Assembly: GCF_900163815.1 (NCBI RefSeq)
Contig: NZ_FUKO01000019.1
Span: 124,001-188,000, forward strand
Source: Microbacterium esteraromaticum
GTDB lineage: Bacteria; Actinomycetota; Actinomycetes; Actinomycetales; Microbacteriaceae
Reading direction: 5' to 3'
DNA length: 64,000 bases
A program made the translations under genes and the position numbers. Below, in pieces: positions 5,131-52,175 of this stretch; within the stretch, counting starts at the first letter, position 1; the number at the start of each line of letters is the position of its first letter. A model generated the notes under the pieces. It was not told the origin of the DNA. It saw only the letters and a list, made by a program, of their open reading frames with translations, and did not search any database.

Positions 5131-5189
5131 TTCCGGTCGCAAATCCGCCCGCTGGGTGCTCGCTTCAACGGGAGAATTTGCGACCGGAA
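5131..5189. repeat. 59-bp palindromic element between paaJ and paaF
   Basis: Perfect 14-base arms (ttccggtcgcaaat at 5131-5144 and its reverse complement at 5176-5189) enclose a 31-base interior with a further cccg/cggg pair. The element fills part of the 142-base gap between two co-directional paa genes. It has no T-run, so a classical terminator is unlikely. It belongs to the group of palindromes described in the findings but has no sequence partner in this window. Confidence 0.85.
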
Positions 5190-5236
5190 GGGCGTGGCTG
5201 CGGGTGAGACGGCGATCACACCGCGGGTAGAGGCGC

Positions 5237-6424
5237 TCATGACACGCGCTCCAGAATCATCGCCGTTCCCTGGCCGATGCCCACGCACATGGTGGCGAGA
5301 CCACGCTCGGCATTCTCCCGCTCCATGCGTCCCATGAGTGTGACGACGATGCGGCATCCGCTCGAGCCGAGGGGATGGCCGAGGGCGATCGCCCCACCGT
5401 CACGGTTGACGATCTCGGGGTCGAGGCCGAGCCGGCGCATCGACGCCAGCGACTGCGTCGCGAATGCCTCGTTGAGCTCCACTGCACCGAGTGCGGAGAT
5501 GTCCAGCCCCGCGCGTTGCAGCGCACGCTCGGTCGCCGGCACCGGTCCGAGCCCCATGATCTCTGGGGCGAGGGCGGCCGATGCCGAGGTGACGATGCGC
5601 GCCCGGGGCACGAGCCCGTACTTGCGCACGGCTTCGCCACTGGCGACGACCACGGCGGATGCGCCATCGTTCAGCGTGCTGGAGTTGCCGGCAGTCACGA
5701 CAGTGCCACCCGCGACGACTGGGCGCAGCGCGGCGAGGGCTTCCATCGAGGTGTCGCGGCGAGGGCCTTCGTCGACGGTGAAGTCGCCCGCGCGGGTGGG
5801 CACGGCCACGATCTCGTCGGCGAAGTGACCGGCATCCACCGCGGCGGCGGCACGCTGCTGGCTGGCGAAGGCGAACGCATCGGCATCCTCACGGCTGATG
5901 CCGTCTTGCCGGGCGACCTCTTCGGCCGTCTCGGGCATCGAGAAGGTGGCCTTGTCTCGGGCCAGCAGCTTCGGGTTCGCGAACCGCCACCCGATCGACG
6001 TGTCGAAAGCGGCGCCGGGTTTCGCCCACGCGCGCTCGGGCTTCGCCTGCACCCAGGGGGCTCGGGTCATCGACTCCACACCGCCGGCGACCATCAGGTC
6101 GGCATCCCCGGCGCGGATCGCCTGCGCGGCCATCGCGATCGCCGACATTCCTGAGGCGCACAATCGGTTCACGGTGATGCCGGGAACGTCGTCGGGCAGT
6201 CCGGAAAGCAGCACAGCCATCCGTGCGACGTTGCGGTTGTCTTCGCCGGCCTGATTGGCGGCGCCGAGGATGACCTCTTCGATCGCCGCATCCGGCACTC
6301 CGGCCCGCTCCACCGCGGCGCGCACGACGAGCGCGGCCAGGTCGTCGGGTCGCACGCCGGCGAGTGCGCCGCCGTAGCGTCCGACTGCCGTACGCACGCC
6401 TCCGACAAGATACGCGTCTGTCAT
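5237..6424 (-). CDS. paaJ: thiolase, 3-oxoadipyl-CoA / acetyl-CoA acyltransferase (PaaJ/PcaF type)
   Basis: This 395-residue thiolase is complete. Cys89 (NRLCASG) is the acyl-carrying nucleophile, and His350 (LGHPLGSSG) and Cys380 (MCVGIGQG) complete the active site. In the phenylacetate pathway it cleaves 3-oxoadipyl-CoA, and at an earlier step 3-oxo-5,6-dehydrosuberyl-CoA, releasing acetyl-CoA. Sequence alone cannot exclude a general acetyl-CoA acetyltransferase; the paa neighbours favour PaaJ. The start ATG 6424 follows agagggagag, and a 65-bp palindrome (6451-6515) lies just upstream, between this gene and the end of the bkd operon. Confidence 0.85.
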   Translation of the reverse strand: MTDAYLVGGVRTAVGRYGGALAGVRPDDLAALVVRAAVERAGVPDAAIEEVILGAANQAGEDNRNVARMAVLLSGLPDDVPGITVNRLCASGMSAIAMAAQAIRAGDADLMVAGGVESMTRAPWVQAKPERAWAKPGAAFDTSIGWRFANPKLLARDKATFSMPETAEEVARQDGISREDADAFAFASQQRAAAAVDAGHFADEIVAVPTRAGDFTVDEGPRRDTSMEALAALRPVVAGGTVVTAGNSSTLNDGASAVVVASGEAVRKYGLVPRARIVTSASAALAPEIMGLGPVPATERALQRAGLDISALGAVELNEAFATQSLASMRRLGLDPEIVNRDGGAIALGHPLGSSGCRIVVTLMGRMERENAERGLATMCVGIGQGTAMILERVS

Positions 6425-6450
6425 CTCTCTCCCTCTGCCATCCGGCTCTT

Positions 6451-6515
6451 CCGTCTATTTGGCGGAAAACCTCGGTATTCGGTTCGTTTTTCGGTACTTT
6501 GCGCCAAATAGACGG
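6451..6515. repeat. 65-bp palindromic element, family 1 copy A
   Basis: Perfect 14-base outer arms (ccgtctatttggcg at 6451-6464 and its complement at 6502-6515) with an imperfectly paired interior. Aligned without gaps to the reverse complement of 39838-39902 it matches at about 52 of 65 positions. It lies between two co-directional minus-strand genes, after the E2 stop and before paaJ. Confidence 0.9.
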
Positions 6516-6525
6516 GGGTGGGGCA

Positions 6526-50440: not shown

Positions 50441-51375
50441 TGACTCGCATCCGACCGCTCGTGACGATTTCTTTCCTCGTGCTGGCATACGGGCTGGCGT
50501 GGCTGGTCGCGCTGCCGCTCTGGCTGGGTGACGGCCTCGCTGAGCCGATCGCGGGTGTGCTGCTACCGGTGATGATGTACGCGCCCGCGGTGGCTGTGGT
50601 CATCGTGCTGCTCGTGCTGCGTCCGATCCCGAAGGGGCAGCGGCTGAGGTTTCTCGGCATCTGGCCGCTGCGCCCTGCGAAGCGCGTCGTCTGGATGAGC
50701 GTGCTCGGTCTCTTCGGGCCGGTCGTCATCATCGTGCTGGCGCTGCTGGTGGCTGTTGGCTTCGGATGGTTGACTGCCGACTTCGTCGGGCTGTCCGGCT
50801 TCCAGGAGCTGCTCAGAGCTCAGACGCCCGATACGTCGACCCCGATTCCGCCGGTGTGGCTTCTCGCCGCGGCGCAGCTGATAGCCATCCCCTTCGCCGC
50901 CGCCACGATCAACGCGGTCGCCGCCTTCGGTGAAGAGCTGGGGTGGCGCGGATTCCTGGTGCCCGCGCTGCGGCGCTGGGGCACCTGGCCGGCGCTGCTC
51001 ATCAGTGGCGCACTGTGGGGGCTGTGGCACACGCCGGTCATCCTGCTCGGCTACAACTTCGGACGCACCGACGTCTTCGGGGTGCTCCTGATGACCGCGG
51101 GATGCATCGTCTGGGGCGTCCTGCTCGGGTGGCTGCGCCTGCGCAGCGCGTCACTGTGGCCGGCGGTCTTCGCCCATGGTGCGATGAACGCGGCTATGGG
51201 TCTGCCAGTGATCTTCATCGCAGCCGGCACCACATTCGAACCAGCGCTCGCCTCTGGTCTGGGAGCATCCGGGTGGATCGCTGGCACGGCAGTGATCGGG
51301 GTGCTGCTGCTGGCGGGGCAGTTCCGGCGACAGCCTCAGTTGGCCGCAGCCCGACCGGACCGGGGGAGGGCTTGA
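50440..51375 (+). CDS. CPBP-family intramembrane glutamic endopeptidase
   Basis: This 311-residue membrane protein has eight helices. Motif 1 is AFGEELGWRGFLVPAL (EExxxR), motif 2 is ALWGLWHTPVILLGYN and motif 3 HGAMNAAMG, the full CPBP (Abi/CAAX protease) site. Family members process prenylated or signal-type peptides or give self-immunity to bacteriocins. It is translationally linked to the DUF1648 gene. Confidence 0.9.
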   Translation: MTRIRPLVTISFLVLAYGLAWLVALPLWLGDGLAEPIAGVLLPVMMYAPAVAVVIVLLVLRPIPKGQRLRFLGIWPLRPAKRVVWMSVLGLFGPVVIIVLALLVAVGFGWLTADFVGLSGFQELLRAQTPDTSTPIPPVWLLAAAQLIAIPFAAATINAVAAFGEELGWRGFLVPALRRWGTWPALLISGALWGLWHTPVILLGYNFGRTDVFGVLLMTAGCIVWGVLLGWLRLRSASLWPAVFAHGAMNAAMGLPVIFIAAGTTFEPALASGLGASGWIAGTAVIGVLLLAGQFRRQPQLAAARPDRGRA

Positions 51376-51400
51376 CCGGTCGCAACCGGCGGGGTTGGCT
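51372..51400 (+). promoter_or_regulatory. leaderless promoter of the O-methyltransferase gene
   Basis: TTGACC (51372-51377), a 17-base spacer and TTGGCT (51395-51400) end six bases before ATG 51407. The -35 overlaps the CPBP stop codon. Confidence 0.55.
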
Positions 51401-51406
51401 GAGGGC

Positions 51407-52069
51407 ATGGCCGAATCCACCCCGCAGAACTGGCGCGCCACCGACGACTATCTCGCAGAGACGCTCGTCGGGCATGACGCGGCTCTCGAAGCGGCGCTCG
51501 CGGCGCAGCGCGCGGCCGGGCTGCCGGAGATCGAGGTCGCCCCGGTTGCAGGCAAGCTGCTGAATCTGCTGGTGCGCATCAGCGGCGCGCGCCGCGTGCT
51601 CGAGATCGGCACTCTCGGCGGCTACTCCACGATCTGGATGGCTCAAGCGGTCGGCGAGACCGGGCGGGTCATCACCGTCGAGGCGGATGCCGATAATGCG
51701 GCGGTAGCGCGCACCAGCATCGATGCCGCCGGCGTGGGTGATCGCGTCGAGATCCGCGTCGGGCGCGCGGCCGATGTGCTGCCGACGCTGGTCGGCGGGT
51801 TCGACCTCGTCTTCATCGACGCCGATAAGGAATCCAACACGATCTACCTTGATTGGGCGGCGAGACTCGGGCATCCGGGCACCATCGTGGTCGTCGACAA
51901 CGTCGGCCGCAGCGGAGACATCGTCGACGCGAGCAGCTCCGATCCGATGGTCGTCGGCACTCGCGAGGCGCTGCGGATGCTGGGAGAAGACCCGCGCTTC
52001 GATGCGACCGCGCTGCAGACGGTCGGCGCCAAGGGATGGGACGGCTTCGCCCTCGCGGTCGTCGTCTGA
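51407..52069 (+). CDS. class I SAM-dependent O-methyltransferase (caffeoyl-CoA OMT-like)
   Basis: The 220-residue protein has the SAM motif VLEIGTLGGYSTIWMA, acidic VITVEADADNAAVA and the metal motif DLVFIDADKESN. Family members methylate catechol-type hydroxyls with a divalent cation. ATG 51407 is set by the upstream promoter and not the frame start at 51395. It is not part of the CPBP operon, despite the 31-base gap, if this promoter is real. Confidence 0.88.
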   Translation: MAESTPQNWRATDDYLAETLVGHDAALEAALAAQRAAGLPEIEVAPVAGKLLNLLVRISGARRVLEIGTLGGYSTIWMAQAVGETGRVITVEADADNAAVARTSIDAAGVGDRVEIRVGRAADVLPTLVGGFDLVFIDADKESNTIYLDWAARLGHPGTIVVVDNVGRSGDIVDASSSDPMVVGTREALRMLGEDPRFDATALQTVGAKGWDGFALAVVV

Positions 52070-52088
52070 CCCGCGAGCGCCGGACCTC

Positions 52089-52175
52089 CGCACGGATGCA
52101 GGGAGAAAACACGCTTGCAGGGTGATTCCAACGGCGTGTCTCCCTCCATCCGTACTAACTCCCTGCATCCGTGCG
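52089..52175. repeat. 87-bp palindromic element before eno
   Basis: Perfect 17-base arms cgcacggatgcagggag (52089-52105) and its complement (52159-52175), plus an inner stem acacgc/gcgtgt (52109-52114, 52134-52139). A partial third copy of the right arm, tccctccatccgta, lies at 52141-52154. It lies 107 bases before the eno start. Confidence 0.9.

What the first reader, a model, noticed from the sequence alone, without database searches (positions are those of the whole stretch)
5131..52175. A diverse class of 55-87 bp palindromes populates this chromosome
Taken together, at least nine elements in 47 kb share a plan: perfect 13-17 base ends or long imperfect arms, total 55-87 bases, mostly single per gap, no coding, no visible target duplication. 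They fall into several sequence families of which three have two copies here. That density, if kept up, would mean hundreds per genome. They are not ordinary terminators, since one lies between divergent genes and one inside a gene. No RAYT-type transposase or IS is in the window to move them. I know of no named element with these sequences.
Basis: partly seen in the sequence, partly recalled or inferred. Interest (0 to 1): 0.8.

Follow-up and report, generated by a model that had tools for sequence, protein, structure and literature searches.

The report
Nuclease-linked palindromes scattered through Microbacterium genomes
This Microbacterium chromosome carries many families of 55-100-base palindromes, at least five of which also sit beside a gene for a predicted DNA-cutting enzyme in the same genome; the enzyme likely recognises and spreads its own palindrome, a partnership we found in none of the papers we searched.

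Summary
In detail: 7 perfect inverted repeats with arms of 13 or more against 0.35 expected, and ten long palindromic elements in seven sequence families (A-F, T). No Y1/RAYT transposase was found.

The partner is a ~330-aa protein with an AbiEi-antitoxin-like N-terminus and a Vsr/homing-endonuclease-like C-terminus. In the same genome, family A adjoins one such gene, D, F and H lie on both sides of three others, and I adjoins a fifth. In relatives, the gene's two flanks share a repeat in 69 of 77 loci, against 3 of 133 neighbouring genes. Palindrome sequence tracks enzyme sequence (Mantel r 0.60, 0 of 2000 permutations). A palindrome taken beside the enzyme gene of Humibacter albus has 17 further places in that genome.

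The best-studied family, Q, is 67 bp: an 11-mer at 1, 20, 38 and 57, i.e. two interleaved 11-N26-11 sites; the published AbiEi operator is 11-N27-11.

The layout works like REPIN-RAYT but with an unrelated enzyme. Shown: families, pairing, co-variation, no target duplication in Q. Inferred: binding, cutting, copying. No movement was seen, and families B, C, E and T have no enzyme found.

The parts
5126..5194 (.). family D palindrome (TTCCGGTCGCAAAT arms)
   Evidence: BLAST of the family hits both sides of the predicted nuclease gene at G000:C48:117347-118279 (L212); G058 has no gap at this place
6451..6516 (.). family A palindrome, copy 1 (CCGTCTATTTGGC arms), 9 bp 3' of the stop of the minus-strand gene 6526-7938
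   Evidence: another A copy lies 45 bp 3' of the predicted nuclease ORF on contig C9
7446..7529 (.). family F palindrome inside gene 6526-7938 (-), 84 bp, reading frame open
   Evidence: same family on both sides of the predicted nuclease at G000:C45:173803-174708 (L216); 19-nt internal repeat
15303..15400 (.). family E palindrome, copy 1, between convergent genes
   Evidence: 18-nt internal repeat; no nuclease found
18892..18982 (.). family T palindrome (best core 18907-18967) between tandem genes
   Evidence: related stretches in G021 and G062; no nuclease found
21953..22024 (.). family B palindrome, copy 1 (perfect arms 21965-21977 / 22012-22024), between divergent genes
   Evidence: absent from the orthologous gaps of G058 and G021; no nuclease found
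39837..39903 (.). family A palindrome, copy 2, 67 bp, between convergent genes
   Evidence: the orthologous gap holds a different long palindrome in G058 and G064, and none of >=33 bits in G021
46097..46165 (.). family B palindrome, copy 2 (perfect arms 46097-46107 / 46138-46148)
   Evidence: absent from the orthologous gaps of G021 and G062, a different palindrome in G058
47537..47605 (.). family E palindrome, copy 2, between convergent genes
   Evidence: third copy at L056:3056-3123; a different hairpin in G058
52089..52175 (.). family C palindrome, 17-bp perfect ends, 19-nt internal repeat
   Evidence: second copy at L047:9648-9732; absent from the orthologous gaps of G058, G021 and G062

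Best explanation
The palindromes are families of dispersed, non-coding elements, several of which also adjoin or bracket a gene for a predicted AbiEi-Vsr nuclease, and that nuclease likely binds its own palindrome and spreads copies of it in trans. Shown: the families, the pairing of nuclease lineages with their own palindromes, the co-variation of the two sequences, and (for family Q) the absence of target duplications. Inferred from fold and site geometry: the N-terminal AbiEi-like domain would bind the 11-bp motifs (in family Q four copies forming two interleaved 11-N26-11 sites), and the C-terminal Vsr/homing-endonuclease-like domain would nick or cut the DNA at or beside the hairpin. Untested: that repair of the cut copies the hairpin to new sites without a target duplication. 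Copies would persist mainly 3' of genes, where they do least harm and may act as hairpins on mRNA ends. Families without an enzyme (B, C, E, T) would be remnants whose nuclease was lost or has diverged beyond our profile.
Confidence: 0.66

Rival explanations
1. The palindromes are operators: the AbiEi-like protein is an autoregulator that binds them at its own gene, and the dispersed copies are a regulon or decoys, with no mobility.
For: AbiEi in Streptococcus represses its own promoter through an 11-N27-11 inverted repeat (PMC3985639 passages), and a palindrome lies a median of 129 bp 5' of the first matched codon in 39 loci.
Against: A second copy at the 3' end of the gene; of 80 Q copies 35 lie between tandem, 28 between convergent and 13 between divergent genes, 2 in genes, 2 at edges, against 99/32/62 gaps of the own genome (chi-square p 6e-4; copies come from many genomes and are not independent); copies in frame inside genes; site content differs between species.
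Confidence: 0.16
2. The palindromes are ordinary hairpins at mRNA ends (terminators or stabilisers) that look alike by gene conversion or common descent, and the nucleases merely use such sites.
For: Most lie between tandem or convergent genes, they form strong hairpins, and some Q copies keep the same neighbours across species.
Against: The sequence, not only the hairpin, is kept: motif columns 2-10 are 96-100% conserved in 79 Q copies while spacers vary; 32-46 bp terminator-like hairpins form a separate class; the nuclease flank test and the forward test in Humibacter.
Confidence: 0.1
3. They are MITE-like relics of a conventional DDE or other transposon; the nuclease is a passenger.
For: Short inverted-repeat elements in several families are the usual look of MITEs (recalled).
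Against: No target duplication in 79 Q copies; no Y1 transposase in 28 of 28 genomes; in the loci the bracketed segment is about 1.0-1.3 kb and the gene calls put only the nuclease in it. Other transposase classes were not searched genome-wide.
Confidence: 0.05

Closest known systems
REPINs and RAYTs (Bertels and Rainey 2011, PMC3116915, passages seen; Di Nocera 2013, PMC3733652, abstract, passages and one section seen)
   Same: Several palindrome families per genome, each next to its own single-copy enzyme gene; short hairpins mostly downstream of coding regions, some inside genes; enzyme and palindrome thought to co-evolve.
   Different: The enzyme is not an HUH/Y1 transposase but an AbiEi-Vsr-type predicted nuclease; the Q-type element is one 67-bp hairpin with a 19-nt internal repeat, not 20-40 bp REPs.
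CGTC-tagged REPs and Rickettsia palindromic elements (PMC3733652)
   Same: Dispersed palindromes said to lack a dedicated transposase; some inside genes.
   Different: CGTC REPs have 8-9 bp stems and 4-5 base loops; the elements here have 11-17 perfect end bases and imperfect arms up to about 30. Whether DUF559/Vsr-type nucleases adjoin CGTC REPs was not tested.
AbiEi antitoxin operators (PMC3985639, PMC7319586, passages seen)
   Same: 11-bp inverted repeats with a 26-27 base gap; an AbiEi-like domain in the adjacent gene; Rv2827c has two pairs of repeats at its promoter.
   Different: Here the sites are dispersed in the genome and lie on both sides of the gene, and the protein has a nuclease-like domain and no toxin gene in the bracketed segments examined.
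Vsr-fold homing endonuclease I-Bth0305I
   Different: No intron or intein was seen; the dispersed part is a short palindrome.
Caulobacter VsrA with a DUF559 domain (PMC12907096, passages seen)
   Same: Chromosomal DUF559/Vsr-like protein, linked there to an SOS response.
   Different: No palindromic repeats are mentioned (0 hits for 'palindrom').

Membership tests
REP/REPIN-RAYT | Y1 (HUH) tyrosine transposase gene in the genome | tested here: not met
   PF01797 in 0 of 28 genomes, own genome included; 5 of 14 control genomes ring
REP/REPIN-RAYT | repeat family adjoins its own enzyme gene and is dispersed in the genome | tested here: met
   met with a nuclease in place of a RAYT
REP/REPIN-RAYT | GTAG or CGTC head on a 20-40 bp stem-loop | not tested
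   no systematic scan; family A ends contain CGTC but its arms are far longer than the 8-9 bp of CGTC REPs
MITE of a DDE transposon | target-site duplication | tested here: not met
   79 full-length Q copies, lengths 1-9 bp, no excess over shuffled pairs; tested for Q only
MITE of a DDE transposon | parent transposase with matching ends | tested here: inconclusive
   bracketed segments hold a nuclease gene only; DDE families were not searched genome-wide
Intrinsic terminator | short GC-rich hairpin followed by a T run | tested here: not met
   read by eye: the flanks of the 8 A copies show no T run; a separate class of 32-46 bp hairpins looks terminator-like. Other families were not checked
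Type IV toxin-antitoxin AbiE | AbiEi-like domain | tested here: met
Type IV toxin-antitoxin AbiE | adjacent AbiEii toxin gene | tested here: not met
   gene calls put a single gene between the palindromes; the neighbours of all loci were not scanned for the toxin family
Vsr/EDxHD (PD-(D/E)XK) nuclease | fold of the catalytic domain | tested here: inconclusive
Vsr/EDxHD (PD-(D/E)XK) nuclease | conserved acidic and basic candidates | tested here: met
   E201, D232, E243, D245, K249 invariant in 33 of 33 rows of alignment A3; a catalytic role is inferred
Vsr/EDxHD (PD-(D/E)XK) nuclease | DNA cleavage | not testable with these tools
   needs the purified protein

The most novel reading that the evidence does not exclude
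A class of bacterial mobile DNA in which a chromosomal AbiEi-Vsr nuclease, not a transposase, disperses its own hairpin: the enzyme's operator-like palindrome has become the mobile unit, each enzyme lineage re-tuning its palindrome, possibly through much of the Actinomycetes (the enzyme profile hits 66 of 81 sampled genera; paired flanks in 14 of 28 loci). It would also offer a candidate mover for other orphan palindromes such as CGTC REPs.
Probability: 0.5. Interest if true: 0.92.

Novelty: new variant of a known kind. Interest (0 to 1): 0.84.

Why it matters
[quoted passage not shown] Here a protein family of unknown role, present in much of a bacterial class, is bracketed by the very palindromes that are scattered in the genome. 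That gives a testable function to many genes now named 'hypothetical' or 'AbiEi antitoxin', would be a second, independent origin of the REPIN-RAYT way of life, and supplies many natural enzyme-site pairs in which recognition has been re-tuned.

Tried and rejected
RAYT/IS200: none found. Rfam at gathering scores: an FMN riboswitch and the tRNA only. Phages and plasmids: Q has no match in either at E 0.1; two nuclease queries match only Tsukamurella plasmids, so this does not look like plasmid or phage baggage. In-frame insertion into the E2 linker (7446-7529): orthologues vary in length there, not provable. Empty-site reading in the window: relatives lack the elements but flanks are too diverged for a footprint. 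Sequence search of solved structures with A3: nothing meaningful. A palindrome 3' of the same gene in G062 looks like family D by eye, but BLAST at 1e-3 does not bear it out and its far neighbour gene differs, so it is not counted. Papers: searches listed nothing that ties DUF559, AbiEi or Vsr-like proteins to palindromic repeats; the library holds open-licence PMC papers only.

Choices made after seeing data: the 55% identity cut in the Q-versus-nuclease table and the 350-bp flank width. Rows dropped: L191 (short flank); L230, L240, L287 (short flank); 15 of 80 loci without a scored palindrome; one of 80 Q rows (not full length); L331 (short flank). The Q places read are those of 69 fetched loci; the list was cut. 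Loci overlap in part (for example L180 and L221). Gene calls come from a codon-score script trained on this genome, less reliable for other genera.
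Full report
Setting. The window is G000:C21:124001-188000 of a 3.37-Mb draft genome in 50 contigs. Relatives found by protein and contig search are mostly Microbacterium; the window's own record name was not shown.

The observation. Seven perfect inverted repeats with arms of 13 or more were found against 0.35 expected; five of them belong to the elements below. In 464 kb of the genome 32 palindromes score 45 bits or more against 2.5 expected. 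Two classes appear: 32-46 bp terminator-like hairpins and 55-100 bp elements that fall into families. In the window these are A (6451, 39837), B (21953, 46097), C (52089), D (5126), E (15303, 47537), F (7446, inside a gene) and T (18892). BLAST of family members over the 464 kb (E<=0.01, fragments included) gives A 6, B 2, C 2, D 2, E 3, F 4, H 1, I 4, Q 4, R 3, S 1, T 1. Family A has 8 copies genome-wide, 63-67 bp, all hairpin-forming, and no match in 57 other genomes, 34 of them of the same genus.

Turnover. Six window elements (A at 39837, both B copies, C, D, E at 47537) have an orthologous gap in at least one of four relatives, and none of them is found there; for D the gap in G058 has length 0. 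In the gap of the A copy, G058 has a family Q palindrome and G064 another kind. By contrast the hairpin beside tRNA-Leu keeps its place in G058 and G021.

Family Q. A 67-bp element found in the same genome (L053:4495-4561) occurs in 22 of 99 genus genomes. Eighty copies with flanks were read: 35 between tandem genes, 28 convergent, 13 divergent, 2 genic, 2 at edges. The 11-mer CGAGAAACCAC lies forward at 1 (79 of 79) and 20 (69), reverse at 38 (73) and 57 (78). Some pairs co-vary, e.g. columns 25/43 pair in 66 of 79 against 48 expected; most others vary too little or no more than expected. No target duplication was found. Q has no match in the phage or plasmid collections.

The partner. Clustering the neighbours of Q elements gave groups of up to 6 loci that are ordinary genes with kept synteny, and a group of 4 loci with a ~330-aa protein that lies between Q copies. 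In the own genome a DUF559 gene lies among family I palindromes. A profile of 16 such proteins finds 10 genes and one weak AbiE-like hit in the own genome. Family links: A at C9 (3' side; the 5' side ends in what looks like sequencing adapter); D at C48, F at C45 and H at C21:580211 (both sides); I at C21:195342 (one adjacent, two within 1.8 kb); J at C21:393670 and K at C18 (both sides, but dispersed copies only as weak fragments). L211 shares a weaker 45-bp repeat; L210 and L219 show no matching pair.

Tests of the pairing. Two flanks of the same gene share a repeat in 27 of 29 genus loci and 5 of 10 own loci, but in 4 of 207 control genes, one of them a nuclease. In the loci (best 80 of 500) it is 69 of 77 against 3 of 133 neighbours; palindromes of 50 bp or more were scored on both sides in 35, one side in 28, neither in 14 of the 77. 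Across the class it is 14 of 28 against 3 of 28. The genus set contains the four discovery loci, and the sets overlap. The closer two nucleases, the more alike their palindromes. Family Q follows nucleases of at least 55% identity (14 of 17 against 8 of 82, p 4e-9). A second family, taken from a nuclease flank (L206), is strong in 10 of 99 genomes, each with a nuclease 44-49% identical to the Q type; 17 of the 28 genomes with a best hit of 44-50% lack it. Starting from one palindrome at a Humibacter nuclease, 17 further places appear in that genome, a forward test in another genus. The enzyme profile hits 108 of 148 genomes and 66 of 81 genera of the class.

Site geometry. The published AbiEi operator is 11 bp, 27 bases, 11 bp inverted (PMC3985639); Rv2827c has two pairs of inverted repeats (PMC7319586). 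The Q element is two 11-N26-11 pairs offset by 19 bp. Of 65 nuclease-linked elements 31 have a strong internal repeat, 27 of them at 19 nt; shuffled ones have none at 19. Window families C and F share it, E has 18. A, B, D, I, K and T do not, so at least two element designs exist.

Mechanism. The layout is that of REPIN-RAYT: several enzyme genes per genome, each with its own dispersed hairpin. The likeliest reading is that the nuclease binds the palindrome through its AbiEi-like part, cuts at or beside it, and that repair occasionally seeds a copy elsewhere. Binding, cutting and copying are inferred. The chief rival is a purely regulatory role; position at gene 3' ends, presence on both sides of the nuclease, and differences between species speak against it.

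What remains open. No movement was observed. B, C, E and T lack a nuclease. Q in the own genome lacks one as well, so orphan families do occur.

Noticed in passing
window:32864-33002 (-): FMN riboswitch (RF00050, 76.6 bits) upstream of the minus-strand gene 31784-32812; the gap is similar in G058, G021, G062 and G064.
   Followed up: partly
window:57692-57734: 43-bp near-perfect hairpin between a gene end and tRNA-Leu(TAA); G058 and G021 keep a hairpin at this place with another sequence, as expected of an ordinary terminator.
   Followed up: partly
L218:1-110 (G000:C9 start): The contig begins with poly-C and what looks like Illumina/Nextera adapter sequence (recognised from memory), an assembly artefact that cuts off the 5' side of the family A nuclease.
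   Followed up: no
L047:6996-7058: A 63-bp family D palindrome lies inside an ORF that reads as nadB (name from memory); whether relatives lack these 21 residues was not tested.
   Followed up: no
L053:4495-4561: A family Q palindrome lies in frame near the C-terminal end of an ORF that reads as a PfkB-type kinase (name from memory).
   Followed up: no
L168 and G095:C2:366606-367161: Clusters of palindromes: three near-identical Q copies with repeated flanks in L168 and four family V matches within 556 bp in G095, like the tandem REPIN clusters described in PMC3116915.
   Followed up: no
L220 (G000:C41:83722): A weak profile hit (E 1e-4) that looks like an AbiE-type pair; no long palindrome scored near it.
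   Followed up: no
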